Source: Anthracocystis setariae (lineage: Eukaryota > Basidiomycota > Ustilaginomycetes > Ustilaginales > Ustilaginaceae). Taken from it: a DNA stretch of 64,000 nt. Position numbers and translations under genes: made by a program. Every line of letters starts with the position of its first letter. Within the stretch, counting starts at the first letter, position 1. Shown one piece after another: positions 34,194 through 58,470 of the stretch. A model generated the notes under the pieces. It did no database searches and was not told the DNA's origin. It saw nothing but the letters and a program-made list of their open reading frames with translations. The stretch lies in contig CAKMXJ010000042.1 in assembly GCA_928724745.1 (NCBI GenBank), positions 612,516-676,515 of the forward strand, read 5' to 3'.

Positions 34194-34223
34194 TTAGGGT
34201 TAGGGTTAGGGTTAGGGTTAGGG
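34194..34223 (+). repeat. Interstitial telomere repeat, 5 x TTAGGG
   Basis: Five perfect TTAGGG units in the same orientation as the chromosome end, immediately followed by TTACAAGG. It marks the boundary between the hairpin array and the first OTU element. Confidence 0.97.
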
Positions 34224-34903
34224 TTACAAGGGCTCTCCCACGGAGGTGCTTCACACCGTGAAATCTGTACTAATGAAACTTGTAGAGGGACCCAAACGGA
34301 GGGTGTATGCAAACTTTGGCGTTACCGATTAACGCCAATTCCGAGATATTTGATGTTGAACCTGTGGGGGCTGATCACCCGGGGAAGAAAAAAAAAGTTT
34401 TTGATCACCTCCAAATGGCTTGCTGTCTTAAGTAAACATGTAGAGGAGTGTGTAGGGAGTGTGTACATAGCGTGGCTAGCCCTGAAAGTGCGTGGTTGCG
34501 GAGATATGGCGGTTCAAAGTTGGTCTCAGCGGGGGGTTCACCTGGGGTATGTACTTGGGGTGAACCTAGGGCCAACCTAGGTTGAATCTAGGGTGAAGTG
34601 CCATTGACTGCCGGAAGTACCGTAAAGCGCGGTAAAGTACTCTCAAGGTACTTCAACCCTGGTACAACCATGGTTATGGTATGGTGTTGACGTCAGTAGA
34701 CCCAAGGTCAAAGGTACCTACAACCCACATCAACTGCATGTCAAGCTTGGTCAGGTACATTTAACATGGACAAAGGTACTTCATTGTGAGGAAAACCCCC
34801 CATCTACTGGATGTAGTGGGGATGAAAAACCTCAGATGAGGTCCTGGAAACTATCTACAACTGGGGCTGAGGTATCTACAAGCGGGGTCTGTGTACAGTT
34901 GAA

Positions 34904-36904
34904 CTAGGGTGAAGGGGAGGGAACTGGCTGGTAAGGTACCTTGTACACCAGTTCATAGTGGTTGCCAGTGTAGTAAAGTGCATGCCACTGACCTTTATCT
35001 GTGGTTCCATGCTCTGCCCGCACTTCAAAGTGGGTACAGTCCACATTAACTACCACCAACTTCAGTCCATAGTAGTTGACAGCAGCTGACAAGGTAGCAT
35101 CATCTCCCCATGTACCTAGAGTGTACATACCTTCAAGGTACTGTGCCACAGTACAAGGTGGGTTGAAGGCATGGGGAGTACCATTGGTGGCCACAAGGAG
35201 AGCTTCTACCATGGGTTGGTGGTGTTCAAGGTACTTGACCACCTCTTCACGCACCTTGCCATGGTACTTCTGGGTACCATAAACCAACTTGGCAATGGCT
35301 CTGAACTGGCAGTTCCCATCTCCTTGTATGTACCCGGCAGTTACACGGTAGTTCTTACTTCCTTGAAGTTCAGAGAAGATCTCCAAAGGTCCAAGAACGT
35401 GGGTTGACAGGATGTTGTACTTCTCCAAGCTGGAGTCAAGGTCCCTTGACTTGGTTGAAGTAGGGAAAGGGTCATCTACAAGGTGGCAATGCTTGGTCCA
35501 TTGGTACTTGTACTTGGCAAAGACCTGTTTACCCAACTCCAACTTGGATGAACTGGACCCAAAAGGTTGGTTCCTGCCGTTTGCCCCATGTACATACGCC
35601 CTGTACTTACTTCCCCTCTTGTAGATCTTGACACACCTTAGGATCTCCTGCAGGTGAACCTCCTCCAAGAGGGGATCCTTGAACCTGGACTGGGGGTCAA
35701 CCACAGTTTCCATCACTTCATCAATGTCAACTGTACTTGGAGTCCAGTTCCACCAGGGTCCAAGGTCCTTCTCCCACCTTGAAGTACGTATACCTGAGTT
35801 CCAACCTAGGGCATTGAACAGGTCTTGCAGGATATAGGTACGTACCTTACCTGGTTTCTTGGTAGCTCTACCCTGGAAGACCCTAAGTTCCTGAGCTTTG
35901 GTGAGCAGTTGGTTGAAATTGTTGAGGTAGTCCCTACGTTTGATGAACTTGAGGCTAAGTTGGCAGTTGGCCATGTGGGGTAAAGTGGGATTCAACCACT
36001 CCTTGAGTTCCAGGAACCCACTATCATAGATCTTGAACCTAGCTTCCTGCACTGTACTGGCATGGACAGTAACTTCAACCCGGAGTCCACCAAGTTTAAC
36101 TGCTGGGAACTTGGCCAACCTATCTTGACGGTTCAACAAGTTGGTTTCCTTGAGGCGGCAAGCATGGATGGACCTAGGGTTGTAGTTGTTGAACTTGCCT
36201 GAAGTGGCCTTCATGGCATGTACAAGGAGGGGGTAAACCTTGATCTTGTAGGTATCACCCCGGTACATGGTAGTCATACTGAGGGAACCATGACCATCAC
36301 CCAACCTTGTAAGCATGGGATAGGTGGTACAAGTACCTGAAGGTAGGTTGGGAGCCTTGACCAACACCACATGAACCTGGGCATAGTTCCTTCCAATGTC
36401 ATAGAAGTTGGTTGCAGCTAGGGGATGCTCGGGTTCACCTAGGTTGACCAGATGTTCAACCGGTACATCATCTAGGTTGAACTTCATTCCATAGCTTTGA
36501 ACCCGGACTGAAGTACAGCCAACCGACTCCAACCTATCTACAAGGTCGTACATGGTAACATGCTGACTACCCTCAATCATGGTTGTAGGGTAGTTTGACG
36601 CCTGCAGAGTGAGGGTGTAGTTCAGTTCCTGCAGGAGAGGTACCTTGTACCTAGGGTGGATCTTCAGTACACAGGGACCTGTACCTAGGTAGACCCAACC
36701 TTCATAGTACTTGACATCCCTGATCTGGGGTGCATGGGAGGTTAAGGTAACAATACTGTACTTGCCAAAGGTTGAAAGTAGGTTCCAGGGGTTGCAAGTG
36801 AAGCTAAACCCATCTAGATCCTCCGGTGTCTCGGGATAAGGTACCCTTATAGGGTCAGGGAAGTCGGTATCCCCTAGTTCCTGCTCCTGGTAAACCCAAG
36901 GCAT
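34904..36904 (-). CDS. OTU-domain cysteine protease with novel N-terminal domain, copy 1
   Basis: 666 residues from the first in-frame ATG (36902-36904). Residues 1-480 form a domain I do not recognise, shared with the genes at 39, 48 and 54 kb; conserved points are WVYLGTGPCVLKIHPRYK, VRVQSYGMK, YKIKVYPLLVHAMKA, LGGLRVEVT and DLFNALGW. At about 420-470 a segment aligns in position with the zinc ribbon of the relatives but has lost its Cys pairs. From about 520 an OTU domain follows: GDGNCQFRA with catalytic Cys532 (codon 35309-35311), TWGDDATLSA, and NHYELV with His649. OTU enzymes cleave ubiquitin or ubiquitin-like chains; the substrate is unknown here. Transcription runs away from the telomere. 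Frame and catalytic residues are intact. Confidence 0.8.
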   Translation of the reverse strand: MPWVYQEQELGDTDFPDPIRVPYPETPEDLDGFSFTCNPWNLLSTFGKYSIVTLTSHAPQIRDVKYYEGWVYLGTGPCVLKIHPRYKVPLLQELNYTLTLQASNYPTTMIEGSQHVTMYDLVDRLESVGCTSVRVQSYGMKFNLDDVPVEHLVNLGEPEHPLAATNFYDIGRNYAQVHVVLVKAPNLPSGTCTTYPMLTRLGDGHGSLSMTTMYRGDTYKIKVYPLLVHAMKATSGKFNNYNPRSIHACRLKETNLLNRQDRLAKFPAVKLGGLRVEVTVHASTVQEARFKIYDSGFLELKEWLNPTLPHMANCQLSLKFIKRRDYLNNFNQLLTKAQELRVFQGRATKKPGKVRTYILQDLFNALGWNSGIRTSRWEKDLGPWWNWTPSTVDIDEVMETVVDPQSRFKDPLLEEVHLQEILRCVKIYKRGSKYRAYVHGANGRNQPFGSSSSKLELGKQVFAKYKYQWTKHCHLVDDPFPTSTKSRDLDSSLEKYNILSTHVLGPLEIFSELQGSKNYRVTAGYIQGDGNCQFRAIAKLVYGTQKYHGKVREEVVKYLEHHQPMVEALLVATNGTPHAFNPPCTVAQYLEGMYTLGTWGDDATLSAAVNYYGLKLVVVNVDCTHFEVRAEHGTTDKGQWHALYYTGNHYELVYKVPYQPVPSPSP

Positions 36905-38413
36905 GGTAGGCAAAAGGTAGGTGCAAGTTTGGTAAGGTAGGTTAAGGTAGGTTGAAGTTGGTGAAGTGGGGTGATGGATCAGAATGTGGAGGAGTGATAA
37001 ATAGGAAGGAAAGGAGTAAATGGTGATAAAAGAAGGCTAAAAAAAGCGAATTTTAAATGCAGAAGTTGACCTACGTTTGTCCCAGTATGTACGGCAGTTC
37101 AACGGCAGTTCAACGTACCATGGTACATCATTGTTGTACACAGTTGCAGTTGGCCTCACCTCCATGTATGTTCTAGTAGGGTCAAGACTCCAACAGCCTC
37201 AGTAAACTGTAGTGAAGTAGGGTTCAAGTAGGGTCAACCATTGGCTGAACACGTTGAAGTGCGGTCAAGTGGGGTCTCACATACATGAACCTATGTTGCA
37301 CTCCAGTCAAGGTGTGGCAACTGTTGTTGTAGCTGCAATCAAACCTCAGTTCAAGCAGGTCAAGCCCAGGTACGCCTTGGCAGAAGGTACATCAGGCACA
37401 GGCAAGGTGGATGCTCCTAGGTTGAGCCTACGTATGAGAACGGTGCAAGTATGTTCAACCACCTTTGACACACGTTACACTTCACCAACCTAAACTGGAC
37501 TTGGCTGGAGCTTCACTAGACCTAGGTTGAACGTCCTCCAAGTGCAGGATGCAAGCAATGAAGGTGTTCCAGTCCTGGTTGACCGTACCTTGCAAATACG
37601 GTCAACCACAGGAAGGTCCCACCAGCCTACATTGAACCTAGCTTTCAGCTCAGGAAGGTTACACAAGCCTATGTTGAACCTAGCTGTGAGCTACTTCCTT
37701 GTACTGTTTGGCAGCTCAACCCTAAGTCAAACCAACGTTGGAAAAGTTGGAATTTTGACCATGTCAAAATGAGTTCCAATCGATCTGAAAATGGTACCAT
37801 CATGTGGAGCTGAGTTGTACGGTTCAAACGCACCCCCATTTGCCCCACTTTGCTTTCCATTTGATGCAGCCATTTCAGTTTGAAGCAGTTGCCGGGCCAA
37901 ATTGGCCAAAAATAGATGTCGGATCTTCATCACGCAAACAGCGCTACTGTTTAGAGCCGTTCAATACGTTCAAAATGATACCTCATTTGCATATGATTAT
38001 TATGTCAGTTACGGTGGAAAATCAATAGCAATATTCCCGATGCCCGTATCTCGGTGAAAATTACGTGTTTGAGCAAAAGAATCACATGTCAGAATTCCCT
38101 GCCTGGGGGCCTATATGAACCTACGTTTGATAAAAATGCAATTTCTTGGTGTTGAGTGAGGTTTAACACGTGCCAGGTAATAGTTCTGACCATGTCATGT
38201 GACCATGTCATGTGACCATGTCATGTGACTAACTGTAATTTCAAAAATTCCCACAGCAAGTCATGTGACTAACTGTAATTTTGAAAATTCCCACAGCCAT
38301 GGATGAAAATTTTGAAAAATTTGGGGTTGAAAAAAAAGGATAAATTCTGTTTTTTTGCACTTTGCATCTTTCTTTCCTACCACCACCATCCATCCTCTTC
38401 CAACTTCTCCAAC
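36905..38413. other. Divergent spacer of element copy 1
   Basis: About 1.5 kb between the two divergent genes, closely matched by 41183-42676. It contains repeated CCTAGGTTGAAC-like words and a 13-bp minisatellite at 38188-38226. The promoters of both genes must lie here. Confidence 0.6.
38188..38226. repeat. 13-bp minisatellite GACCATGTCATGT x 3
   Basis: Three units in copy 1; the matching place in copy 2 (about 42467-42492) has two. A ~37-bp pair containing CATGTGACTAACTGTAATTT follows directly. Confidence 0.9.
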
Positions 38414-38460
38414 ATGCCTGCTGATCGCTCTACCACCTCTTCCAAGCCTTCTGGCAAGGG
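38414..38460 (+). pseudogene. Zn2Cys6-like gene truncated by telomere repeats
   Basis: The first 15 codons (MPADRSTTSSKPSGK) match the intact gene at 42677. The sequence then becomes GGGTTAGGG repeats, giving an immediate stop. The break shares GG with the telomere repeat, as expected for healing by telomerase. Confidence 0.9.
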
Positions 38461-38502
38461 TTAGGGTTAGGGTTAGGGTTAGGGTTAGGGTTAGGGTTAG
38501 GG
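38461..38502 (+). repeat. Interstitial telomere repeat, 7 x TTAGGG
   Basis: Seven perfect units, starting inside the broken Zn2Cys6-like gene and ending at TTACAAGG of the next element copy. Confidence 0.97.
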
Positions 38503-39181
38503 TTACAAGGTGATTCCCACGGAGGCCGTTCACACCGTGAAATCTGTACTAATGAAACTTGTAGAGGGACCCAAACGGAGGGTGTATGCAAACTTTGGCG
38601 TTACCGATTAACGCCAATTCCGAGATATTTGACGTTGAAGGTGTGGTGGGCTGATCACCCGGGGAAGAAAAAAAAGTTTTTGATCACCTCCAAATGGCTT
38701 GCTGCCTTAAGTAGACATGTAGAGGAGTGTGTAGGGAGTGTGTACATAGCGTGGCTAGCCTGGAAAGTGTGTGGTTGCGGAGATATGGCGGTTCAAAGTT
38801 GGTCTCAGCAGGGGGTTGACCTGGGGTATGTACTTAGGGTGAACCTAGGGCCAACCTAGGTTGAACCTAGGGTGAAGTGCCATTGACTGCCGGAAGTACC
38901 GTAAAGCGCGGTAAAGTACTCTCAAGGTACTTCAACCCTGGTACAACCATGGTTATGGTATGGTGTTGACGTCAGTAGACCCAAGGTCAAAGGTACCCAC
39001 ACCCCACATCAACTGCATGTCAAGCTTGGTCAGGTACGTTTAACATGGACAAAGGTACTTCATTGTGAGGAAAACCCCCATCTACTGGATGTAGTGGGGA
39101 TGAAAAACCTCAGATGAGGTCCTGGAAACTATCTACAACTGGGGCCAAGGTATCTACAAGCAGGGTCTGTGTACAGTTGAA

Positions 39182-41182
39182 CTAGGGTGAAGGGGAGGGA
39201 ACTGGCTGGTAAGGTACCTTGTACACCAGTTCATAGTGGTTGCCAGTGTAGTAAAGTGCATGCCACTGACCTTTATCTGTGGTTCCATGCTGTGCCCGCA
39301 CTTCAAAGTGGGTACAGTCCACATTAACTACCACCAACTTCAGTCCATAGTAGTTGACAGCAGCTGACAAGGTAGCGTCATCTCCCCATGTACCTAGGGT
39401 GTACATACCTTCAAGGTACTGTGCCACAGTACAAGGTGGGTTGAAGGCATGGGGAGTACCATTGGTGGCCACAAGGAGAGCTTCTACCATGGGTTGGTGG
39501 TGTTCAAGGTACTTGACCACCTCTTCACGCACCTTGCCATGGTACTTCTGGGTACCATAAACCAACTTGGCAATAGCTCTGAACTGGCAGTTCCCATCTC
39601 CTTGTATGTACCCGGCAGTTACACGGTAGTTCTTACTTCCTTGAAGTTCAGAGAAGATCTCCAAAGGTCCAAGAACGTGGGTTGACAGGATGTTGTACTT
39701 CTCCAAACTGGAGTCAAGGTCCCTTGACTTGGTTGAAGTAGGGAAAGGGTCATCTACAAGGTAGCAATGCTTGGTCCATTGGTACTTGTACTTGGCAAAG
39801 ACCTGTTTACCCAACTCCAACTTGGATGTACTGGACCCAAAAGGTTGGTTCCTGCCGTTGTCCCCATGTACATATGCCTTGTACTTACTTCCCCTCTTGT
39901 AGATCTTGACACACCTTAGGATCTCCTGCAGGTGAACCTCCTCCAAGAGGGGATCCTTGAACCTGGACTGGGGGTCAACCACAGTTTCCATCACTTCATC
40001 GATGTCAACTGTACTTGGAGTCCAGTTCCACCAGGGTCCAAGGTCCTTCTCCCACCTTGAAGTACGTATACCTGAGTTCCAACCTAGGGCATTGAACAGG
40101 TCTTGTATGATATAGGTACGTACCTTACCTGGTTTCTTGATAGCTCTACCCTGGAAGACCCTAAGTTCCTGAGCTTTGGTGAGCAGTTGGTTGAAGTTGT
40201 TGAGGTAGTCCCTACGTTTGATGAACTTGAGGCTAAGTTGGCAGTTGGCCATGTGGGGTAAAGTGGGGTTCAACCACTCCTTGAGTTCCAGGAACCCACT
40301 AACATAGATCTTGAACCTAGCTTCCTGCACTGTACTGGCATGGACAGTAACTTCAACCCGGAGTCCACCAAGTTTAACTGCTGGGAACTTGGCCAACCTA
40401 TCTTGACGGTTCAACAAGTTGGTTTCCTTGAGGCGGCAAGTATGGATGGACCTAGGGTTGTAGTTGTTGAACTTGCCTGAAGTGGCCTTCATGGCATGTA
40501 CAAGGAGGGGGTAAACCTTGATCTTGTAGGTATCACCCCGGTACATGGTAGTCATACTGAGGGAACCATGACCATCACCCAACCTTGTAAGCATGGGATA
40601 GGTGGTACAAGTACCTGAAGGTAGGTTGGGAGCCTTGACCAACACCACATGAACCTGGGCATAGTTCCTTCCAATGTCATAGAAGTTGGTTGCAGCTAGG
40701 GGATGCTCGGGTTCACCTAGGTTGACCAGATGTTCAACCGGTACATCATCTAGGTTGAACTTCATTCCATAGCTTTGAACCCGGACTGAAGTACAGCCAA
40801 CCGACTCCAACCTATCTACAAGGTCATACATGGTAACATGCTGACTACCCTCAATCATGGTTGTAGGGTAGTTTGACGCCTGCAGAGTGAGGGTGTAGTT
40901 CAGTTCCTGCAGGAGAGGTACCTTGTACCTAGGGTGGATCTTCAGTACACAGGGACCTGTACCTAGGTAGACCCAACCTTCATAGTACTTGACATCCCTG
41001 ATTTGGGGTGCATGGGAGGTTAAGGTAACAATACTGTACTTGCCAAAGGTTGAAAGTAGGTTCCAGGGGTTGCAAGTGAAGCTAAACCCATCTAGATCCT
41101 CCGGTGTCTCGGGATAAGGTACCCTTATAGGGTCAGGGAAGTCAGTATCCCCTAGTTCCTGCTCCTGGTAAACCCAAGGCAT
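39182..41182 (-). CDS. OTU-domain cysteine protease with novel N-terminal domain, copy 2
   Basis: Same 666-residue product as copy 1, with about ten substitutions, for example KIYVSG for KIYDSG and GDNGRN for GANGRN. GDGNCQFRA, TWGDDATLSA and NHYELV are intact. I start at the ATG at 41180-41182, as in copy 1. In this copy the frame also stays open to 41443, because one base change removes a stop that copy 1 has just upstream, but the extension shows no conserved feature. Most differences are conservative and both copies remain open, which suggests selection on the protein or very recent duplication. Confidence 0.8.
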   Translation of the reverse strand: MPWVYQEQELGDTDFPDPIRVPYPETPEDLDGFSFTCNPWNLLSTFGKYSIVTLTSHAPQIRDVKYYEGWVYLGTGPCVLKIHPRYKVPLLQELNYTLTLQASNYPTTMIEGSQHVTMYDLVDRLESVGCTSVRVQSYGMKFNLDDVPVEHLVNLGEPEHPLAATNFYDIGRNYAQVHVVLVKAPNLPSGTCTTYPMLTRLGDGHGSLSMTTMYRGDTYKIKVYPLLVHAMKATSGKFNNYNPRSIHTCRLKETNLLNRQDRLAKFPAVKLGGLRVEVTVHASTVQEARFKIYVSGFLELKEWLNPTLPHMANCQLSLKFIKRRDYLNNFNQLLTKAQELRVFQGRAIKKPGKVRTYIIQDLFNALGWNSGIRTSRWEKDLGPWWNWTPSTVDIDEVMETVVDPQSRFKDPLLEEVHLQEILRCVKIYKRGSKYKAYVHGDNGRNQPFGSSTSKLELGKQVFAKYKYQWTKHCYLVDDPFPTSTKSRDLDSSLEKYNILSTHVLGPLEIFSELQGSKNYRVTAGYIQGDGNCQFRAIAKLVYGTQKYHGKVREEVVKYLEHHQPMVEALLVATNGTPHAFNPPCTVAQYLEGMYTLGTWGDDATLSAAVNYYGLKLVVVNVDCTHFEVRAQHGTTDKGQWHALYYTGNHYELVYKVPYQPVPSPSP

Positions 41183-42676
41183 GGTAGGCAAAAGGTAGGT
41201 GCAAGTTTGGTAAGGTAGGTTGAGGTAGGTTGAAGTTGGTGAAGTGTGGTGATGGATCAGAATGTGGAGGAGTGATAAATAGGAAGGAAAGGAGTAAATT
41301 GTGATAAAAGAAGGCTCAAAAAAGCGAATTTTAAATGCAGAAGTTGACCTACGTTTGTCCCAGTATGTACGGCAGTTCAACGGCAGTTCAACATACCATG
41401 GTACATCATTGTTGTACACAGTTGCAGTTGGCCTCACCTCCACGTATGTTCTAGTAGGGTCAAGGCTCCAACAGCCTCAGTAAACTGTAGTGAAGTAGGG
41501 TTCAAGTAGGGTCAACCATTGGCTGAACACGTTGAAGTGCGGTCAAGTGGGGTCTCACATACACAAACCTATGTTGGACTCCAGTCAAGGTGTGGCAACT
41601 GTTGTCATAGCTGCAGTCAAACCTCAGTTCAAGCAGGTCAAGCCCAGGTACGCCTTGGCAGAAGGTACATCAGGCACAGGCAAGGTGGATGCTCCTAGGC
41701 TGAGCCTACGTATGAGAATGGTGCAAGTATGTTCAACCACCTTTGACACACGTTACACTTCACCAACCTAAACTGGACTTGGCTGGAGCTTCACTAGACC
41801 TAGGTTGAACGTCCTCCAAGTGCAGGATGCAAGCAATGAAGGTGCTCCAGTCCTGGTTGACCATACCTTGCAAATACGGTCAACCACAGGAAGGTCCCAC
41901 CAGCCTACATTGAACCTAGCTTTTAGCTCAGGAAGGTTACACAAGCCTATGTTGAACCTAGCTGTGAGCTACTTCCTTGTACTGTTTGGCAGCTCAACCC
42001 TAAGTCAAACCAACGTTGGAAAAGTTGGAATTTTGACCATGTCAAGATGAGTTCCAATGGATCTGAAAATGGTACCATCATGTGGAGCTGAGTTGTACGG
42101 TTCAAACGCACCCCCCATTTGCCCCACTTTGCTTTCCATTTGATGCAGCCATTTCAGTTCGAAGCAGTTGCCGGGCCAAATTGGCCAAAAATAGATGTCG
42201 GATTTTCATCACGCAAACAGCGCTACTGTTTAGAGCCGTTCAATACGTTCAAAATGATACCTCATTTGCATATGATTATTATGTCAGTTACGGTGGAAAA
42301 TCAATAGCAATATTCCCGATGCCCGTATCTCGGTGAAAATTACGTGTTTGAGCAAAAGAATTACGTGTCAGAATTCCCTGCCTGGGGGCCTATATGAACC
42401 TATGTTTGATAAAAACGCAATTTTTTGGTGGTGAGTGAGGTTTAACACATGCCAGGTAATAGTTCTGACCATGTCATGTGACCATGTCATGTGACTAACT
42501 GTAATTTCAAAAATTCCCACAGCAAGTCATGTGACTAACTGTAATTTTGAAAATTCCCACAGCCATGGATGAAAATTTTGAAAAATTTGGGGTTGAAAAA
42601 AGGATAAATTCTGTTTTTTGCACTTTGCATCTTTCTTTCCTACCACCACCATCCATCCTCTTCCAACTTCTCCAAC
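41183..42676. other. Divergent spacer of element copy 2
   Basis: About 1.5 kb, near-identical to 36905-38413. No further gene is visible; short frames on the plus strand match in both copies but carry no recognisable motif. Confidence 0.6.
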
Positions 42677-43036
42677 ATGCCTGCTGATCGCTCTACCACC
42701 TCTTCCAAGCCTTCTGGCAAGGCCCCAGCTGATCTCCCAGTCCAGCATCCATGCCAGTTCTGTATTGACTCAGGCAAGCCTTCCTCCTGCACCCCTATGC
42801 CCTCTGACAGATCCCTCAAGTGTTCCAAGTGTTTTGGCAATGGCTTAGGTCCCTGCAAGGTGGTTGCAGAGCCCATTGGCAAGCTCAAGAAGGCCAACAA
42901 CCCTGACCTCCAAGCTCTCAAGGAGAACATCACCATGCTCCACTCCATGATCTCCTGCCTTGATGATGATGTTAGTGGCAAGGCCATGCTCACCACCATG
43001 GCCAAAAGGTGCCTTGACAAGGCCAATGCTCTCTAG
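42677..43036 (+). CDS. Small Zn2Cys6-like protein, intact copy
   Basis: 119 residues. Six Cys at 26, 29, 38, 49, 52 and 60 give C-x2-C-x8-C-x10-C-x2-C-x7-C, close to the fungal Zn2Cys6 binuclear cluster (usually x2, x6, x5-12, x2, x6-8). The first 20 residues are Ser/Lys/Pro-rich. The C-terminal half is helical (NPDLQALKENITMLHSMISC) and could dimerise. A DNA-binding role is inferred from the cysteine spacing only. It is divergent from the OTU gene of the same element. A related gene with exact Zn2Cys6 spacing lies at 56461, near another member of the OTU family, so the pairing recurs. Confidence 0.65.
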   Translation: MPADRSTTSSKPSGKAPADLPVQHPCQFCIDSGKPSSCTPMPSDRSLKCSKCFGNGLGPCKVVAEPIGKLKKANNPDLQALKENITMLHSMISCLDDDVSGKAMLTTMAKRCLDKANAL

Positions 43037-43199
43037 TCTCTTTGTATCTTAGTTCATAACATGCCCTGACCCCCTGGATAAGTCAGGTTGCCTTGGGAGG
43101 CAGACCCAACAATCATAAAAGCAATATAATGTCCATGAACACCCACACTATCCACCATTGTGATGTATAATTGGGCTTATAATGCTTATCCCCAGGATC

Positions 43200-43213: not shown

Positions 43214-43645
43214 TTACAAGGGGGTCTGAATTACAAACAGGGTAGGGTTGCTTAATAAAAGTTGTTCATCTACCCAAAATAGGTATATTTGATTACTTAA
43301 CCCTATGCAAGTTGCATAATAAAATGTTGCTGTACGGCTCCGTCAATATCGGCCCAACTCGACTCGGGTTGGCAAAAATTTCACTTTTCAGGGACGCACC
43401 CATAGTAAAGGGTTACAAGGGGGTCTGAATTACAAACAGGGTAGGGTTGCTTAATAAAAGTTGTTCATCTACCCAAAATAGGTATATTTGATTACTTAAC
43501 CCTATGCAAGTTGCATAATAAAATGTTGCTGTACGGCTCCGTCAATATCGGCCCAACTCGACTCGGGTTGGCAAAAATTTCACTTTTCAGGGACGCACCC
43601 ATAGTAAACTATGGCTCAAATAGGCCCAAATGAACACCCTGGGGT
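43214..43645. repeat. Module B, two tandem copies
   Basis: Starts TTACAAGGGGGTCTGAATT. Copy one spans 43214-43412 and is cut at CATAGTAAA; copy two starts at 43413 and continues past that point. Shared words include TTGCTTAATAAAAGTTGTTC and GTCAATATCGGCC. Non-coding. Confidence 0.85.
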
Positions 43646-43924
43646 TTGATGGGCAAAAAATCGTTGTTTGGACGCGTCCCTGAGAAAATGAGACGGTCGA
43701 TTTGAAAATTGTGCTGAATTTTGAAATGCCAGGAAGACGTGCCACTTCAAAATTATTTTGGATTTGAATTCAGCAGATGACGGTCCACTTCAAAGAAAAA
43801 GACAGACGGTCTACTTCAAATTGGAAGACAGTCAGTAACAATTTGAAGACAATCAGTAAGAAACAGGAGACGGTTGGTAACAAAGCAGAAGACAGTCCAC
43901 TACAATTGCAAAGGCCAGGCAGAC
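43646..43924. repeat. Module E, copy 1
   Basis: Begins GGTTTGATGGGCAAAAAATC and contains degenerate repeats of GAAGACGGTCCACTTCAAA. Related copies lie at 50516-51000 and 51650-52084. It ends at TTAGGG (43925-43930). Confidence 0.8.
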
Positions 43925-43930
43925 TTAGGG

Positions 43931-44060
43931 TTACAAGGGGGTCTGAATTACAAACAGGGTAGGGTTGCTTAATAAAAGTTGTTCATCTACCCAAAATAGG
44001 TATATTTGATTACTTAACCCTACGCAAGTTGCATAATAAAATGTTGCTGTACGGCTCCAG
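43931..44060. repeat. Module B, truncated copy 3
   Basis: Preceded by TTAGGG at 43925-43930 and cut after CTGTACGGCTCC, where GGGTAGGG and the next TTACAAGG follow. Confidence 0.85.
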
Positions 44061-44067
44061 GGTAGGG

Positions 44068-44507
44068 TTACAAGGCTCTCCTCAGCGACTATGAATTTCA
44101 CCATCAAATCTGTACTAATGAGAGTTGTAGAGCTGGCTGAGAGCTGCCAGAAACCATTGAGTTTGGGGTAAAGTTTACTCTATTGACGGAGATACGGGCA
44201 TTTGAAGTTGCTGCCAGGATTCTGTCGGGGAAGAATATTTTTTTTTTCAAAGCGGAGGAAGGGTGGAGGCAATGTGTGGAACAGCTAGAAGAACCTATAG
44301 AGAGGCTGTACACATGTCAAGAGTGGTGAAATTGCAAGTGGTTGCGGTGCTACAGGGGTTCAAAGTTGACACCAAGGTACCTTGAACCTAGGTCCAAGTT
44401 TGGTCAACCCAGGTTTGAAGATGGGGTCCAAGTAGGGTTGACCGAAGTTGAGGGTAGGTTGACTGAGGGTTGAAGTTCAAACTTGGATGCTGGCTGGGGT
44501 GTTCTGG
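44068..44507. repeat. Module C, copy 1
   Basis: Starts TTACAAGGCTCTCCTCAGCG. It carries AAATCTGTACTAATGA and later two GAGATA-type words like module A. Non-coding. A second copy at 45000 runs on into the 3' flank of an OTU gene fragment, so module C is the left end of a divergent OTU element. Confidence 0.85.
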
Positions 44508-44993
44508 TTACAAGGGGGTCTGAATTACAAACAGGGTAGGGTTGCTTAATAAAAGTTGTTCATCTACCCAAAATAGGTATATTTGATTACTTAACCCTAC
44601 GCAAGTTGCATAATAAAATGTTGCTGTACGGCTCCGTCAATATTGGCCCGACTCGACTCGGGTTGGCAAAAATTTCACTTTTCAGGGACGCACCCATAGT
44701 AAACTATGGCTCAAATAGGCCCAAATGAACACCCTGAAACTCCCATGGAAGGGCGCAAAGTGGTTGTGGAGCTATGGCCGACTTGTCGTTTTTGGAGATT
44801 TCGGTCGAAGCTCCAAGGGTCCCCCCTTTGAAAGTGGGAAAATGGACCAGGGTTACAAGGGGGTGTGCTTTTACAAACAGGGTAGGGTTGCTTAATAAAA
44901 GTTGTTCATCTACCCAAAATAGGTATATTTGATTACTTAACCCTACGCAAGTTGCATAATAAAATGTTGCTGTACGGCTCCGTCAATATTGGG
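44508..44993. repeat. Module B, copies 4 and 5
   Basis: Copy 4 spans 44508-44852 and is the longest, ending at AAAATGGACCAGGG. Copy 5 starts at 44853 with the variant GGGTGTGCTTTT and is cut at GTCAATATTG by TTAGGG (44994-44999). Confidence 0.85.
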
Positions 44994-44999
44994 TTAGGG

Positions 45000-45842
45000 T
45001 TACAAGGCTCTCCTCAGCGACTATGAATTTCACCATCAAATCTGTACTAATGAGAGTTGTAGAGCTGGCTGAGAGCTGCCAGAAACCATTGAGTTTGGGG
45101 TAAAGTTTACTCTATTGACGGAGATACGGGCATTTGAAGTTGCTGCCAGGATTCTGTCGGGGAAGAATATTTTTTTTTCAAAGCGGAGGAAGGGTGGAGG
45201 CAATGTGTGGAACAGCTAGAAGAACCTATAGAGAGGCTGTACACATGTCAAGAGTGGTGAAATTGCAAGTGGTTGCGGTGCTACAGGGGTTCAAAGTTGA
45301 CACCAAGGTACCTTGAACCTAGGTCCAAGTTTGGTCAACCCAGGTTTGAAGATGGGGTCCAAGTAGGGTTGACCAAAGTTCAGGGTGGGGTTGACCTAAG
45401 TTGAGGGTAGGTTGACTGAGGGTTGAAGCTCAAACTTGGATGCTGGCTGGGGTGTTCTGATGGAGTCCAAGCTGGGTGACTTGAAGTTGAAGTATGTGCC
45501 AAGTATAGTTTGGACCGAGCTTGAACTGTACTTCCTGCACTTCAACTAAGGTTGATGGTACTTCTGCCTATCTTCAACCATGGCTTGGCAATGTACTTGA
45601 ACCTGGTTGGACTCAGGTTCCAACATACTTGGATGAGGTCTGCCTAGGGTTCAAGGGTCAGTCCACAGAGGTTGATCCTACTTCAGTCTAGGTTGGAAGG
45701 TACTTTGATCAAGAGAAAGGTACTTCATTGTGAGGAAAAACCCTCAGTGAAGAGGATGAAAAAACCTCAGATGAAGTCCATGGGAACTTCAGGAACTATG
45801 TACAACTAGGAGCCAACTATATACAAACTTCGGTCCAAGTAC
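45000..45842. repeat. Module C, copy 2, continuing into an OTU-element 3' flank
   Basis: Identical to copy 1 for about 400 bases apart from small indels. It then continues with GGTACTTCATTGTGAGGAAAA, which also precedes the OTU genes at 34790 and 39055. No gene lies in it. Confidence 0.8.
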
Positions 45843-46061
45843 CTATGCCTCTGAGTTGTACTTCAGTACAAGCTCATAGTGGTTGCCTGTGTAGTAGAGG
45901 GCATGCCACTGGGTAGGAGCAGGTACTTTGTTGACCTCAAAGTAGGATCTATCTGGGTTGATGATCACCAAACTGAGCTTGAAGATGGAGACTGCTGCAC
46001 TTAAAGTAGCATCATCCCCCCATGTACCATGCCTGGCCATCTTAGAAAGGTAGGTTCTGAC
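45843..46061 (-). pseudogene. C-terminal fragment of a divergent OTU protease
   Basis: About 70 residues remain: GTWGDDATLSAAV, LVIINPD, and WHALYYTGNHYELV with the catalytic His. The sequence stays homologous up to about 46055 and then meets TTAGGG at 46062, so everything upstream in the gene, including the catalytic Cys, is missing. The product differs enough from the 34-41 kb copies to be a separate subfamily. Confidence 0.85.
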
Positions 46062-46067: not shown

Positions 46068-49000
46068 TTACAAGGGGATCTTGTGGTAGGGCTGAAGACA
46101 TAACACCCCCTTCTCTGTGCATTACTGGATAGTGCTAGGTGAGTTTGGCTGAAGTCATTAAGTGGCCCTACGCAAGTTGACTATAAAAACAGGTCAGGGC
46201 GGGTCACCGAAAGTAGGGTCGGGACCCCGGGTCGAGGTAGGGTCTGAGAACTTTTTTTGGATTTTGAGGGATCTGATGCCGCAGGAAGGTGCGTAATGGT
46301 GAAATAGGAATGTATGCAAGAAAGCAGGGATGGGGAATGCATACTGAGGGTATAGGGGCAGCAGAAGTTGAAAAACGGCCAAATCCAAAGGGGGGACCAT
46401 GGGAGCATTTTGTGGACCAAAAAAGTGGCTTGGATGGACTGCATCTCTTAATGACATACATGTCAAATGGTGCCAAATGGCTGTATCTGCAAGGTCAATG
46501 CTGTACCGGTTGCGGTTGCAGCGGGGAAGGGTGAAACGTGTCAGCCAGGCCCTACCCCCGTAGGGTTGGACTCTTCTGGCATAATAAGTGGCCATTTTTT
46601 GATGTGCGCTGGGGTTCTCTGGCATGCAGGAGCCATATCAGACACTATCTAAGCAAGTTGTCTTCCAGGCCCTAGGGCTAAAATTTTTTGGGACCTGAAC
46701 CTAGCCCTAGCCCTACCCTGGTCAGGTAGGGCCGACCTGAACTTGTATATTGAGACACTGCTGTTGAATGTGCGGTGAGGCTCTCACACCTTCTAAAGAT
46801 GATTCAACCACTTTGCAGGTCTGTCTGCCTCTTTTGGTCAGTCACCGGTAGGGCCACCAAACACCACAGACAGGAAGGTGTAGACGTGTATACTATTATG
46901 TATTGGAGCGACTATTTACATGGTCTAGGGGAAAAAACCCAGTGGGAAAAAAGTGCCCTAGACCCCACAACTATTTACATACGGAACACAGAACTTGGAA
47001 CTTGGAACAGATCAGGGGAACAGGAGCTCATAATGCTGGGACTTGGCCAGGTGAAACAGGCCATAGTGGGGTCCCTCTGCATTGTGAGGGTAGATGGTGC
47101 CATGGCTGTCACCGGTCTGAGGGTCTGTGCCAGAGTAGACCATGATTGAGATGCTGAATGCCTGCGCAATGGCCATGAGCATGATCTCGTCACCCCATGT
47201 TCCTGGCTTGGCCATGTTAGCCAGGTATGTGGCAGCGGAGAGATGCCCATCGCCCTGGGCCGCAAATACCAGCAGGATGTCAGGATTCCGCTGCAGCCAG
47301 TGGATTGCTTTTGTCCTGACCATCATATGCTGGTCTTGGTTGCCTGTCAGGTGGTATGCCATGGCCCTGAACATGCAGTTGCCATCCCTGCCAATGATGT
47401 TGCTGACCTTCAGACCATACAGGTTGCGAAGCGTAGCAGCCAGTACAGTGACTCTGTCAACAGCATGGAGGCTGGGCTTGCTCTGCAGTGGCTGACGGGA
47501 GGGCAGGGTGACTGCTGGTGATACCATCAGCTCAGCCACAAAGGGGTTGGGTGTCTCCCTGCATCTGCGGTCTGGGCTGGAGACCAGCTCTGCATCAAGC
47601 TCATCCAAGATGGCCTGAATGCTAGCGCTGGTCTCTGCGCTGCTGCTCCTAACCACAGCAGGGGCTGGCAATGCTGCTGGGAGGAGCACCACTGCATCTG
47701 TGCCATGCGTGTGCAGCTCCACCGTTGGTGCTGCCACTGCAGGAGAGAGACGCCTACGCAGACGGTTGCTCTGACGGCGTGGACCATGCAGAGGATGGAC
47801 AGGAGCCTGGTCAGCTGAGGAATCAGAGTTGCTGCCAAGGTCAGGCATGTCGACATCCTCCTCCTCTGTAGTGACTGCCTCCATTGCTGCTGCCTCTGGC
47901 TCTGGCACTGGCTCTGGACCCAGGTCTACCGTCAGACGGCCTTGATCAAGCAGCTGGCCAAAGTACTCTCGAGCCTGCTCTTGATTGAGGCGTGCCTTGC
48001 AGCCAGTGCACTGCAGGCGGAACTGACGGCGCCCACCTTGGTTGTACAGTGCTGGCGCTGGCTTCTGACACTTGGGACACGGTGTCTGACCTTTGATCTG
48101 GCCAAAGAAGCTACGCAGAGCATCCATGGTGCGCAGACGGGCGCTTCAGGAGAGCCTTGGATGGCTGACGGCGCTCCTCAGCCTGTGTTTCCATCTCCAC
48201 ATCATTGCTGGTGATCACTGGTGCTTCTCCTTGAGAGTGGAGCCACCAGGCAGCTGGATGATCCCAGCGTGTTGGCTCAAAGCGTCCAGTATGCCAACCC
48301 AGCGCATTGAAGAGGTCAATGATGATCTGCTGGGAGTCAGGGTGAGGAGAGCGGCTGTTATTGCCAGAGAACACCTGTTGCTCATCTGCTTTGGCCAGCA
48401 GATCACGCAGGTTCTTGATGTAGTCCTCCTTGTTGATCTTGATGCTCCGTATCTTGTACAGCTCCATTGCCTCAACCCGTGGCGTCATGTACTGGGTTAT
48501 ATTGAGCACAGGAGTAGCCGTGATGTTGCGTACAGCAAGGCTGAGGGTTGGGCTGGTGATCGTAGCCTCAACCCGTATGCCACCAAGCTGTTGGCTTGAT
48601 AGCTTCTCCATGTGCGCCAGATGGCCAAGCAGGGTTGCTCTCCGCTTCTTGCAGATGTAGATTGACTTTGGCTTGTTGAGCATGTGGTTGCCAGCCTGTG
48701 CCTTGATCTGGTGGACGATGCGTGGATAGATCTTCACCCGATATGTCTCACCACCGTACTGGACCGGCATCTGGACACCGCCAAAGCCCTGGCCCACCGG
48801 TGTGAGGATGGGATACTGCTGGAGGCCAGGGATGCTGTCATGTCGGTTGGTCACAAGCCAGATGTTCTGGCTGGGCCAGTTACATGCCAGGTCAAAGGTA
48901 TTGAGGTCCGACATTGGGTGTTGAGGGTTGCCAAGGTCTGGACCGTCATATGGGTAGTTGACCCACATCTTCATGCCGTAGCCTTGGACTCTGACAGTAT

Positions 49001-49860
49001 CAACACCTGCCTTCTGCAGACAGTTGATGAAGACACTGCAGGTGATCACCTGATTGCCCCGGATCAGAGCTTCAGGATAGTCGGAGCCCAGCATGATGAT
49101 GTCGGCGGAGATGAGGACGTTGAGGAGCGGGATCTTGAACTTTGGGTGGATCTTGATGTTGAAGACGCACTGGCCAGCGCTGACCCAGTCCTTGAATGTG
49201 GGATGGTCCTTGATGGTGGGAGCGTGACTGACCAACTGAACAGGTGACATTGGCTTGAACACCTGGAGTAAGTCTTTGGGGTACAGGCTGATGTTCACGC
49301 ATCAAGGTCACGTGGAGCCATGAATCCTTTGGTGACTTGATGGTCCATCCTAATGGGCAATGGATGGTCCATTGTGACGCTCTCAAGGGAATAGAGAGGT
49401 GCTGAAAAGAAGAGAGAGGATTGCTTGGGCGTCTGTGCTGTGTCTGGCGCAAAGTGAGTTGATGTTGCTCGGTCGTTTGATTTGTCCAATGCTTGAGGTC
49501 TTGATGTCCTGGGATCTTGAGGAGGGTTCCTGTGGATGATAATGGGCTTGGTGCAACGTCAAGAAGAGGCTATTGACAAGGTCTTGAGGTGGTCTTGTTG
49601 TCTTGAGGTCCTTTGCTTTGGATTGCTTGATGCTCTTGAGGTTTGTTGACTTTTTTTGTTCCACCAGAGGTGATCTTCCAATCTCCACTAGATATGGTTG
49701 GCCAAGCCACGTCTAGCAGAGAATACAGAAGACAAGACGCCGGGCAGGAGCTCTGTATAGGGACTAGTCACCTAAGTCAAGAGACAGCACCAGTCGTCTT
49801 AGAACACGTCAACTCACTTGCAGACTTCTTGAGGCACAGGGATACGCACACACACTGAAA
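46068..49860. mobile_element. Third, divergent OTU element (decayed; right end unclear)
   Basis: Starts TTACAAGGGGATCTTGTGG after TTAGGG. A non-coding left part of about 930 bases follows, with a patch of CCCTAG-type words near 46700. The frameshifted OTU gene comes next on the minus strand, then about 490 bases of upstream region. No Zn2Cys6-like gene was found, and the block runs into CACAGCCAC minisatellites without a TTAGGG boundary. Confidence 0.5.
47012..49372 (-). pseudogene. OTU protease gene broken by two single-base frameshifts
   Basis: Three frames make up one gene. (1) ATG at 49370-49372 to 49295 encodes MDHPLPIRMDHQ..RDLDA. (2) 49298-48111 encodes the N-terminal domain (NISLYPKDLL, IKIHPKFKIPLL, VRVQGYGMK, VKIYPRIVHQIKA, DLFNALGW). 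(3) ATG at 48125-48127 to 47012 encodes 371 residues with a zinc ribbon (Cys 17, 20, 40, 43), a Ser/Pro-rich linker and the OTU domain (GRDGNCMFRA with Cys251, TWGDEIMLMA, final QHYELLFP with His365). One missing G near 49296 (DA-W-NIS in the pseudogene relative) joins 1 and 2; one base near 48120 joins 2 and 3. Part 3 has its own ATG after a TGA and might be translated alone. Assembly error is possible at both points. Confidence 0.75.
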
Positions 49861-49984
49861 AAGCGACAAGGAAAGAGCCAGATAGGTGGGAGAAAGGGCC
49901 TGTATATATACCTTTCATCCCCCTGACATATGGCGCAGAAATTCGCTTTTTTGCCACCGTGGAGCCATCTAGAAAGCAGTGGAA

Positions 49985-50512
49985 GCTCCTGAGCACAGCC
50001 ACATGCACAGCCACGCACAGCCACATGCACAGCCACGCACAGCCACATGCACAGCCACGCTTCCAGCACTTTCCATCACCTTCCGGAAGGTTCCAAAACC
50101 AGTTTCCATGGGGTTCCACATGCTTCCATTGGTTTCTGGAACATTCTGAAAGATTCCAGAAGTTTCTACTGCACAGCCACATGCACAGCCACATTTCCAC
50201 AACATTCTGGAAGATTCTGGAACCTTCTATCACTTTCCATCGGCTTCCATGACCTTCTATTGGGTTCCATCTGCTTCCATCAGCTACCGGAAGGTTCTAG
50301 AAGGTTCTGCCATGCACAGCCGCATGCACAGCCAAGCTTCCACAACATTCCGGAACCTTCTATCACTTTCCATCGGCTTCCATGACCTTCTATTGGGTTC
50401 CATCTGCTTCCATCAGCTACCGGAAGGTTCTAGAAGGTTCTGCCATGCACAGCCACATGCACAGCCAAGCTTCCACAACATTCCGGAACCTTCTATCACT
50501 TTCCATCGGCTT
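49985..50512. repeat. CACAGCCACATG minisatellite and TTCCATC-rich tandem repeats
   Basis: First, CACAGCCAC(A/G) words recur from about 49995 to 50060. A unit of about 130-136 bases then begins AACCTTCTATCACTTTCC at 50220, 50356 and 50486 (last copy cut). Each full unit carries GCACAGCC(A/G)CATGCACAGCC. All are non-coding. Confidence 0.85.
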
Positions 50513-52084: not shown

Positions 52085-53184
52085 TTAGGGTTACATATGG
52101 GTCCCCGTGTGAGTTATGGTGATCATTTGGTACCGTTGGAAAGCTCTTTTCTCGTAGATTGTGATCAGAAAATTCTGGCGAAATCGTTTGCATACTTTTT
52201 TGCGAAATTACGTAAACGTAGGTCCACGCGTACACTTTGGCTGGGGGCGTCGATGAGGAAGCATAACCCTGGGGGTTTTTTTATGTCAGTTTGTGCAGTA
52301 TATAGATAGACTTGGGAACACAAACACCAGGTACGGTGGCTGCACCGTAGCGGGCGTAGTTGACGTAAATGTACGTCTGCGCGTACATGTTGGCTGGTGG
52401 CGACAGTGAGCAAGCCAAACTTTGGGGGCTGCTTGGGGTCAGTGTGTGCACTATATGGGTACACTTTGGCATGCCAAGGCTTGGTGCAGTAGCTGCAGCG
52501 TAGGGGCCGCAGATGGGGAGTCAAGTTTGACTCATGGAGGATCCCGAGCTTCCCGAGCTTCCCGAGCTATTCCGACGCATTCCGAGCTCCCCGAGGTGAT
52601 TTTCCGAGTTTCCGTGTCGGAAATTTTTTTTCGCTTTTTTGCAATGACAGATTGTGTTAATTGGCGCAATCTAACAAATCTGGAAATGTCAGGAAATTTC
52701 CGCTTTTTTTGCAATGCAGAACATGCTACTCAACGCAATCTAACATGTTCAAGAATGTCCAAAATCCTCGCTTTTTTGCGGTGTCGGATTGTGTCGATGA
52801 CGTTGATCGAACACATCCGGTGTCGCCAAAGAGCACTGAGAACGGCGTGTTTGGAAGATGAGGATGGTAGCTGCATGCCTTGGCAAGCGAGCTTTTTTGA
52901 AGCGGGCAACGAAGCTTCTATGGCGGTCCTCTTGTGTGATGGCTTGCCTTAGGGTTGCATAGCAACATTTGAACTGCCAGCATACCGATCAAGACTTGGC
53001 TCGTGTTGCTGCATGGTCTGGCGAGGAAGGATGGGAAAGAGAACAGAGCACAGGAAGATGGCTAGGGGCCACCTGTGACGAGTCGAGTTGACTATATACT
53101 TCCCCAAGGTTCCCGACCCTCGGAAATGGTCGGCAGGATCGGAAGGCACGGGAATGGCCACGGGAAGCACGGAACCGCGTTCCG

Positions 53185-53425
53185 TATCCAGGGTCCAATT
53201 TCGAAATTTCGGAAATTCCACAGGCAGGCACGGGAGGCACGGGTAGCTTGGCCTGAGCACGGGAGTTTGCTCGGAAGCCAGGGCTCAATTTGGAAATTTC
53301 GGAAATTCCACGGACAGGCACGGGAGGCACGGGTAGCTTGGCCTGAGCACGGGAATGTGCTCGGAAGCCAGGGCTCAATTTGGAAATTTCGGACATTCCA
53401 CGGGCAGGCACGGGAGGCACGGGGG
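53185..53425. repeat. 90-bp tandem repeat, three copies
   Basis: Units contain CAATTT(C/G)GAAATTTCGGA and then GGCACGGGAGGCACGGG at intervals of about 90 bases (about 53190, 53280, 53370). Confidence 0.85.
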
Positions 53426-53640
53426 GTTAGGGTAGCTTGATCTGACCACAGTAGCACCTCGGGAAGCACGGGACAACACGGTGTTGCCTCGGCAATGCGT
53501 CCGACTCGGATTTCACACAGAGGCAAAAACATATAAATACAGACCCATTTCATTTCAACCCTAACTCTAACGGAACCATCCATTCCGAGGTTACTGACCC
53601 CCTTATTCCGAACATCCCGAGCCTCCCGAGCCTCCCGATC

Positions 53641-55586: not shown

Positions 55587-55739
55587 CTTGGTTGAGCACT
55601 GAGGGTTGGGTCTCTGAGCCTCGCGGGAGCCGTCTTTTTTTCCGAGCTTTCCGAGCTTCCCGAGCTTCCCGAGCTATCCCGATGCTGTTCGAGCTTTCCG
55701 AGCATTCTGAGGATATTTTCCGTGTTTCCGACCTTACCA

Positions 55740-56135
55740 ATCCACCTCGGGATCGATTTTCGAATTTCCGAACTCCCCGAACCCCTCGGGATCAATTTTA
55801 ATTATTCCAATCTTACCGATACACCTCGAGATCAAATTTGGAATTTCCGATCTTACCGATCAACCTCGGGATCAATTTTCGAATTTCCGAACTCCCCGAT
55901 CCCCTCGGGATCAATTTTAATTATTCCGATCTTACCGATACACCTCGAGATCAATTTTGGAATTTCCGATCTTACCGATTAGCCTCGGGATCAATTTTCG
56001 AATTTCCGAACTCCCCGATCCTCTCGGGATCAGTGTCGAAATTTCCGATCTTATCGATCCACCTCGGGATTAATTTTCAAAATTCCGAACTCTTCGATTT
56101 TCTCGGGATCAGTTTTCGAATTTCCGATCTCCCCG
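55740..56135. repeat. 40-bp repeats arranged in 120-bp units
   Basis: CCTCGGGATCAATTTT-type subunits of about 40 bases recur nine or ten times. A higher-order period of about 120 bases is clear for the first two units (about 55744 and 55864) and weaker in the third (about 55983). Confidence 0.88.
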
Positions 56136-56460
56136 ATCCCCTCGGAATCGATATTTTATTTTTTATGATCTCACCGAGATATTCGGGCGCGGGTTTTTAT
56201 TTTCCGAGTTCCCGAGATACTCGAGAAACACGGGAAGCACTTCATTAACCTCGGGAAGCACTTTTTCAACCTCGGGAAGCTTTTCGGTCGGAATTCGGAT
56301 CTTAGCTCGGGGTACATTTTTTTCAACTGTTACTCTGACTTCTTTCCTTCCTACTTCTCACTGCCAACGTGTTCTTCAATTCCGACCCTCATTTTCCGAC
56401 CTTTCCGTCACTTACCGAGCTTTCCGACCCTCCTCTTTTTTGTTTTCCGATCCTCCTGTA
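56136..56460. other. Promoter region of the Zn2Cys6-type gene
   Basis: About 325 bases, pyrimidine-rich near the end, with the same CCGA/TCGG bias. No other gene is visible. Confidence 0.5.
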
Positions 56461-57266: not shown

Positions 57267-57339
57267 ATTTTCTGTGTGTGCCCGAGTGACTTAGAAAAAA
57301 TTCCGTGTGTGACCTTTACTTTCCGTGATCATGTAATCA

Positions 57340-57950: not shown

Positions 57951-57991
57951 TTAGGTTAGGGTTAGGGTTAGGGTTAGGGTTAGGGTTAGGG
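57951..57991 (+). repeat. Interstitial telomere repeat, TTAGG + 6 x TTAGGG
   Basis: It cuts the preceding tandem repeat and is followed by TTACAAGG of the terminal array. Confidence 0.97.
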
Positions 57992-58470
57992 TTACAAGGT
58001 GATTCCCACGGAGGCCGTTCACACCGTGAAATCTGTACTAATGAAACTTGTAGAGGGACCCAAACGGAGGGTGTATGCAAACTTTGGCGTAACCGATTAA
58101 CGCCAATTCCGAGATATTTAGCGTTGAAGGTGTGGGGGAGTGCTCACGCGGGGAAGAAAAAAAAAGTTTTTGATCACCTCTGATGGTGCTGACGCTTTAA
58201 TGGGATGTGTAGAGGGGGTGTTATACGGTGATGTTCCCAGCATTGCAGTGCGTCATTATGTCTTGTCACGGCTCAGGAGTGGTTCAAAGTTGGTCACCTC
58301 CCATGTCAGACACTGCTGATCTAACACGGCAGAATAATTCTTCCTTTTTTGCAATGTGAGATTGTGTTGACTGGCATAATCTAACAGTGTTTATTAATTG
58401 CTTTATTTTAGAGCCGGAATTTTTGGCTATTTAATTTTAGGTTTGGTTCTAATGCTTATCCCCAGGTGGG

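What the first reader, a model, noticed from the sequence alone, without database searches (positions are those of the whole stretch)
38503..43199. A complete two-gene element flanked by telomere repeats: candidate new telomere-associated mobile element
Directly seen: a 4.7-kb block begins TTACAAGG after seven TTAGGG and ends shortly after TAATGCTTATCCCCAG before two more TTAGGG. It carries an OTU cysteine protease and a divergent Zn2Cys6-like gene and nothing resembling a transposase or reverse transcriptase. A second near-identical copy lies in tandem to its left. Members of the same protease family recur in three more subtelomeric blocks, and a Zn2Cys6-type gene accompanies one of them. Inference: the pair travels together and is targeted to, or maintained at, telomere repeats.
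Basis: partly seen in the sequence, partly recalled or inferred. Interest (0 to 1): 0.9.

Follow-up and report, generated by a model that had tools for sequence, protein, structure and literature searches.

The report
Telomere-hopping DNA elements in smut fungi
Chromosome ends of a smut-like fungus carry mobile pieces that are joined to the chromosome at one exact point, in which no reverse transcriptase was found, and whose protein has a predicted shape resembling bacterial DNA-nicking enzymes, which hints at a new way for DNA to move onto chromosome tips.

The parts
34194..34223 (+). (TTAGGG)5 acceptor tract in front of the first element copy
34224..38459 (+). Element copy 1 (b-type end), cut at query position 4220 and capped by TTAGGG; keeps about 15 codons of the Zn gene
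   Evidence: 98% identity, starts at position 1
34904..36904 (-). Open NTD-OTU reading frame of copy 1 (666 aa); 12 synonymous and 10 non-synonymous differences from copy 2
38461..38502 (+). (TTAGGG)7 acceptor tract
38503..38510 (+). TTACAAGG: the exact proximal border, proposed nick/joining point (5' end of the transferred strand)
38541..38553 (+). AATCTGTACTAAT, conserved in the aligned ends of families a, b, c, e, g, h (one substitution in i and in one a-type copy)
38595..38617 (+). Covarying hairpin TTGGCGTTA-CCGAT-TAACGCCAA inside the border
39182..41182 (-). NTD-OTU protein gene (666 aa, open)
40019..41110 (-). N-terminal domain (NTD) folded alone: pLDDT 89.6, pTM 0.86; best structural matches are the Rep_trans nickases
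40511..40513 (-). Codon of the invariant Tyr (Y200 of the NTD, residue 224 of the protein), proposed nucleophile in KxYPxxxH
   Evidence: role inferred
39212..39652 (-). OTU cysteine protease domain with GDGNCQFR and NHYEL motifs
42677..43036 (+). 119-aa Zn2Cys6-like ORF (CX2CX8CX10CX2CX7C), opposite in orientation to the OTU gene
43180..43195 (+). TAATGCTTATCCCCAG, the 16-mer of a second border family; here close to the distal break of this copy
43214..46060 (+). Run of d- and c-type elements, most of them short and cut, each starting at TTACAAGG
46068..50512 (+). f-type element with NTD and OTU in two separate frames (ORFs 48111-49298 and 47012-48127, minus strand)
52091..57955 (+). Block with another border (TTACATATGG): degraded NTD gene in the opposite orientation and a Zn2Cys6-like frame from 56461
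57992..63823 (+). Terminal array of short elements of several families up to the telomere

Best explanation
These are telomere-end DNA elements that move as one DNA strand. The element's Rep_trans-like protein (the NTD, here fused to an OTU protease) nicks the outward-running (TTAGGG-sense) strand exactly in front of TTACAAGG and keeps hold of the new 5' end through its invariant tyrosine. The displaced strand, from the border toward the donor telomere, is joined by its 5' end to the free 3'-OH of another chromosome end: often TTAGGG, but also eroded ends, most of them finishing in G, GG or GGG. The strand's 3' end is wherever it broke or stopped, and telomerase caps it with TTAGGG. The border is therefore precise and the distal end variable; no target cleavage and no reverse transcriptase are needed. 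Shown: the exact border, one orientation, variable distal ends, joins to non-telomeric flanks, blocks shared between contigs that start at the border, a covarying hairpin near the border, dN below dS in the NTD genes. Predicted: the fold. Inferred: nicking, covalent linkage, strand transfer, and any help from the OTU protease or the Zn2Cys6-like protein.
Confidence: 0.5

Rival explanations
1. Telomere repair (ALT-like break-induced replication, with microhomology and telomerase healing). Eroded or healed ends carrying a few telomeric nucleotides invade the interstitial telomere repeats beside the blocks and copy outward; copying stops early and telomerase caps the end. The borders only mark where interstitial repeats lie, and the NTD protein is a passenger or a telomere-binding factor.
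For: The border types seen start with TT after GGG; 31 of 70 flanks end in 6 or more telomeric nt and many others in G, GG or GGG; tandem arrays of multi-element units are present; such repair is described for Pyricularia (passages of PMC7367193 and PMC8381367). Family ab contains only 3 internal GGTTA and no GGGTTA, so telomere-like homology does favour the border.
Against: C6 and C8 share a 5.5-kb block with non-telomeric flanks on both, though a third, telomere-flanked donor is possible; 11 of 70 flanks (about 8 independent joins) have 0-1 telomeric nt, for which only TTA (34 sites in ab) or GTTA (8) could guide the join, yet 126 of 133 fragments start at the border. It does not explain a covarying hairpin or an NTD gene kept under selection in several border classes.
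Confidence: 0.25
2. MoTeR2-like retrotransposition in trans. An RNA read toward the centromere ends ...CCUUGUAA(CCC), primes on the TTAGGG 3' end and is copied by a reverse transcriptase supplied elsewhere; 5' truncation gives the variable distal ends.
For: Geometry of the ab, e and f elements: the OTU ORF reads toward the fixed border; the fixed side is hardly ever truncated (126 of 133); different bodies share one end, as MoTeR1/2 share ends (passages); FoTeR junctions are likewise asymmetric (section 19).
Against: No reverse transcriptase found in a border element in sense orientation: PF00078 gave 150 scored of 206 candidates, compared by eye with the 100 listed of 175 borders. The hairpin's G.T bias is on the strand opposite to such an RNA. 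9 of 10 long class 2 NTD matches lie 1.6-1.8 kb behind their border and read away from it. A block of many elements starting at the border is hard to copy from one RNA.
Confidence: 0.17

Closest known systems
MoTeR1/MoTeR2 and FoTeR telomeric retrotransposons (Magnaporthe, Fusarium)
   Same: Sit in telomere repeats, one orientation, precise proximal end, truncated distal end capped by telomere, head-to-tail arrays, ends shared between elements with different bodies (FoTeR abstract and section 19; MoTeR passages)
   Different: No reverse transcriptase found in the element; joins to non-telomeric ends; NTD gene orientation differs between border classes; a covarying hairpin with G.T bias on the outward strand
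Rep_trans / MOBT rolling-circle initiators and relaxases (pT181 Rep, NicK of ICEBs1), and archaeal Rep-Arvir
   Same: Predicted fold, order and placement of the D, R, [R/K]xY and RxE positions, hairpin beyond the gene's 3' end
   Different: No significant sequence similarity; one metal acid missing; fused to OTU; eukaryotic chromosome ends; no circular form seen; no activity shown
Helitrons/Helentrons
   Same: Rolling-circle transposons that also carry OTU proteases (passages)
   Different: No HUH Rep, helicase or apurinic endonuclease matched in the element ORFs scanned; chromosome-end acceptor; variable distal end
Agrobacterium T-DNA (VirD2), recalled only
   Same: Relaxase-bound 5' border precise, 3' border often truncated
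   Different: Different relaxase family; cross-kingdom transfer; from memory, no call
UTASa/UTASb of Ustilago maydis, telomere-linked helicases; Y' elements
   Same: Subtelomeric repeats beside telomere tracts (passages)
   Different: No helicase matched in the element's ORFs; the telomere-linked helicase of this window is a separate gene at 26-31 kb

Membership tests
Rep_trans (PF02486) / MOBT | Significant match to the family by sequence profile | tested here: not met
   hmmscan of 16 NTD-bearing members at E<=10: no PF02486; genome search at E<=10: none, while the control rang in B. subtilis; hhalign P 0.63 and 0.58
Rep_trans (PF02486) / MOBT | TBP-like crescent fold of the catalytic domain | tested here: inconclusive
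Rep_trans (PF02486) / MOBT | Catalytic Tyr in motif III ([R/K]-x-Y, polar residue at +5) and R-x-E in motif IV | tested here: met
   Invariant K198-x-Y200-x4-H205 and R251-x-E253 in A4, A5 and A7; strand/helix placement as described. The correspondence is by order and secondary structure, not by a printed structural alignment
Rep_trans (PF02486) / MOBT | Basic residue at Tyr+2 (K193 of RepDE) | tested here: inconclusive
   R or K in 8 of 9 rows of A5; Leu in the reported element's own protein
Rep_trans (PF02486) / MOBT | Three metal-binding acids | tested here: not met
   Two of three (D7, E253); the motif I Asp is Q, S or G. Changing that one had minimal effect in the archaeal enzyme (passages)
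Rep_trans (PF02486) / MOBT | Nicking and religation of its origin | not testable with these tools
   needs protein
MoTeR/FoTeR telomeric retrotransposon | Insertion next to telomere repeats with a precise proximal and truncated distal end | tested here: met
MoTeR/FoTeR telomeric retrotransposon | Reverse transcriptase in the element or in a partner sharing its end | tested here: inconclusive
   none in the element ORFs scanned; no partner seen by eye among 150 PF00078 hits and the 100 listed of 175 borders
Helitron/Helentron | HUH Rep plus helicase | tested here: not met
   no such domain in the element ORFs scanned; the genome-wide PF14214 search rang nowhere, controls included, so it is not informative
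Helitron/Helentron | OTU protease carried along | tested here: met
   Helentron OTU from passages
Y' / telomere-linked helicase element | Helicase gene in the repeat | tested here: not met
   no helicase in the element ORFs scanned; the helicase at 28673-30706 is outside it

The most novel reading that the evidence does not exclude
A new class of eukaryotic mobile element: a relaxase-like (Rep_trans-fold) protein, of a kind reported so far from bacteria and, since 2026, archaea, nicks a fixed origin in subtelomeric DNA and hands the 5' end of the strand to the 3' end of another chromosome, so that whole chromosome tips spread without target cutting, reverse transcription or homology. Several border/protein classes coexist in the subtelomeres of this fungus.
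Probability: 0.45. Interest if true: 0.97.

Novelty: categorically new. Interest (0 to 1): 0.87.

Why it matters
If true, it adds another enzymatic route for DNA to move onto chromosome ends, besides telomerase and reverse-transcriptase elements, and places a Rep_trans-like nickase in eukaryotes. The paper on the archaeal family says Rep_trans enzymes had appeared restricted to bacteria (passages of PMC13107129). It would explain how fungal subtelomeres reshuffle whole ends, link the recurring OTU protease of rolling-circle transposons to a second, unrelated nickase fold, and give a short, testable join (GGG|TTACAAGG). Even if the mechanism is wrong, an exact border joined to non-telomeric ends needs an explanation beyond homologous telomere repair.

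Tried and rejected
Complete 4.7-kb transposon with two borders: rejected, the distal border is not shared. The 16-mer as the right end: rejected, it is a separate fixed start. Chance: rejected. Rfam match for the conserved end: none at gathering score; one weak miRNA-type hit elsewhere. RNAalifold on alignment A3: no structure, perhaps because gaps break the hairpin; the hairpin was then placed by a 9-5-9 search (60 of 89 sites with at least 5 inner pairs; the other 29 sites, 5 variants, keep a 7-bp TTGGCGT/ACGCCAA stem). So the tested structure was chosen from the sequences. On 24 non-redundant ends RNAalifold gave similar energies for both strands (-26.1 and -25.9); mean single-sequence RNA energies were -36.9 (outward strand) and -33.2. 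NTD as a reverse transcriptase: no convincing support in the fold searches; Foldseek's first two rows are a viral RdRP at E 0.22-0.34 with TM-score 0.08. Fold search of the full protein: the rows with support are OTU domains. Profile of the NTD against PDB chains: nothing at E<=10. Cf1c phage Rep as a Rep_trans yardstick: its ORF looks HUH-type by eye, so dropped; MOBT relaxases from Bacillus were used. Protein search: 8 relatives at E<=0.001, but only candidates sharing short words are scored, so remote relatives are not excluded. Literature: no listed title or abstract start in searches describes an OTU telomere element or a eukaryotic Rep_trans protein; lists were capped (20 of 61, 20 of 31 and 12 of 252) and only openly licensed PMC papers are held. 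In one search the e-type comparison used a wrong frame (28 stops) and is disregarded. In one search my script's 'other' class (54 of 81 rows) is mostly borders preceded by shared telomere repeats; by eye 6 of 69 non-edge rows start away from any border and 5 at a TTACATAGGGG border not in my list; rows are not independent.
Full report
What the window is. The window is the last 64 kb of a 676.5-kb contig (C36) of a 21.5-Mb, 36-contig genome. The protein's one relative with an organism name is Ustilago trichophora UTRI_05404 (64% identity), so this is a smut-like fungus; the species was not determined. The contig ends in a run of 26 TTAGGG repeats plus a few bases.

The border. TTACAAGG at 38503 follows seven TTAGGG. 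Searching the own genome with the 4.7-kb block gives 118 matches; by eye more than half start at position 1 and stop at different places, and most others are diverged internal stretches. TTAGGGTTACAAGG occurs 175 times (100 forward, 75 reverse; reversed-pattern control 0); the 100 places listed all lie within about 21 kb of a contig end and point outward (by eye). In the DNA I could read (left ends of 20 contigs, one of them N, the window, and pieces of other ends) there are 148 TTACAAGG sites, 105 distinct up to the next border. With five family references, 250 of 250 alignments have the same orientation; of 136 chosen fragments 3 touch a locus edge, and 126 of the remaining 133 start at position 1-2. 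The 7 exceptions are short or diverged internal alignments, among them a 62-nt piece at 97% on C12. Distinct alignment end points number 16 in family ab, 13 in d, 10 in c, 5 in e and 2 in f; by eye about 10, 10 and 9 in ab, d and c are real cuts followed by TTAGGG or another border, the others contig edges or changes of body.

The border does not need telomere repeats. Of 70 distinct 20-nt left flanks, 31 end in 6 or more telomeric nucleotides and 39 in fewer: 9 with none, 2 with one, 8 with two, 9 with three, 7 with four, 4 with five. By eye 4 or 5 of the 39 are slipped telomere tracts, and the 11 with none or one represent about 8 independent joins. Pieces of 13-16 nt sit between joins, for example TTACAAGGTGAGGG|TTACAAGG and TTACAAGGGGGTGTGC|TTAGGG.

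Two natural experiments. C19 and C36 are 99.95% identical over 6,200 nt, beginning 2 nt before TTACAAGG; proximal to that, C36 has (TTAGGG)7 and C19 has a cut c-type element ending TTCCTGG. The C19 end aligns again to the end of C36 (99.4% over 5.9 kb and 98.6% over 3.9 kb), and borders listed for C19 fall at matching distances; the middle of the C19 end (about 10.0-18.8 kb) was not read, so a transfer of about 25 kb is an inference. C6 and C8 share 5,520 nt at 99.9% that begins GG|TTACAAGG, with two different non-telomeric flanks (CCAATGT and CCTCAAG). Recombination through telomere repeats does not predict this directly, although a third, telomere-flanked donor cannot be excluded, and an RNA copy of a stretch with many elements is unlikely.

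The bodies. Families share ends but not always bodies. The f-type border (11 places with up to 1 mismatch) carries NTD and OTU frames in the window and, by positions, NTD genes about 2.1 kb away on C18, C19, C31 and C32; on C6 and C8 only 659 nt are shared, followed by a Zn2Cys6-like gene and a Copia reverse-transcriptase fragment (RVT_2 E 6.3e-68) near the telomere. The left tandem copy of the reported element stops after about 15 codons of the Zn gene. The pair is therefore a recurrent association, not a fixed unit. Other borders exist: TTCTAATGCTTATCCCCAG (its 16-mer at 159 places with up to 2 mismatches), TTTGATGGGC, TTACATATGG and others.

The origin-like end. Ends of families a, b, c, e, g, h and i (14 rows) align with invariant CCTTGTAA and TATCT and a nearly invariant ATTAGTACAGATT (reverse strand). 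A 9-5-9 hairpin 92-94 nt inside the border appears in 11 variants; every kept non-Watson-Crick pair is G.T on the outward strand (17 against 0 on the other; changes are few and related). In 12 rows 85.0% of cells pair against 69.4% in shuffles, 5 pairs change on both sides, covariation is 0.510 against 0.231 with 0 of 500 shuffles reaching it, and slid versions fall to 0.02-0.15. The structure was derived from these sequences, which inflates paired cells. Whole-end DNA folding is ordinary.

Mechanism. A nickase that holds the 5' end at TTACAAGG and passes it to a free 3' end gives these features at once: exact proximal border, variable distal end, telomere cap, joins to eroded ends with a preference for terminal G, transfer of everything distal to the border, no reverse transcriptase, and indifference to gene orientation. 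Steps shown are the joins and the sequence constraints; nicking, covalent linkage and strand transfer are inferred. The OTU protease may act as proposed for Helentrons, where OTU proteases recur (passages of PMC4067079).

Rivals. Telomere repair with microhomology (0.25) accounts for G-ending flanks and arrays but poorly for C6/C8 and for joins with 0-1 telomeric nt at the same base. Retrotransposition in trans (0.17) fits the geometry of the OTU-bearing elements and the MoTeR2 precedent (passages of PMC7367193; FoTeR section 19) but lacks a visible reverse transcriptase and conflicts with hairpin strand bias, class 2 orientation and block transfer.

Noticed in passing
window 26080-30709 (+): Telomere-linked RecQ-like helicase: DEAD and Helicase_C domains in the frame 28673-30706, preceded by an overlapping 986-aa frame without a Pfam hit at E<=0.01, possibly one spliced gene.
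   Followed up: partly
window 33150, 33473, 33796, 34108: Four copies of an inverted repeat CTTTGACATGCCTTTA...TAAAGGCATGTCAA spaced 312-323 nt, just proximal of the first border.
   Followed up: no
L022 1-5589 (C6) and L024 235-5746 (C8): f-type border carrying a Zn2Cys6-like gene and a Copia RVT_2 fragment (scanned on C6) close to the telomere repeats.
   Followed up: partly
L034 (C18), L023 (C7), C3 1800762-1810192: Regular tandem arrays of border units, about 1.19 kb, 453 bp and 446 bp (C3 by positions only), suggesting later amplification by another route.
   Followed up: no
window 63981-64000; L024 contig start: Beyond the terminal TTAGGG run both ends continue with GGTGCTGGTGTTACCGT, which looks like an untrimmed nanopore barcode (recalled, not looked up) and so would mark true physical chromosome ends.
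   Followed up: no
window 43645 and 51652 onward: Another border family, GGG|TTTGATGGGCAAAAAAT, with GACGGTCC-type repeats behind it.
   Followed up: no
window 31880-32740 (+): 286-aa ORF without a Pfam hit at E<=0.01 between the helicase and the inverted repeats.
   Followed up: no
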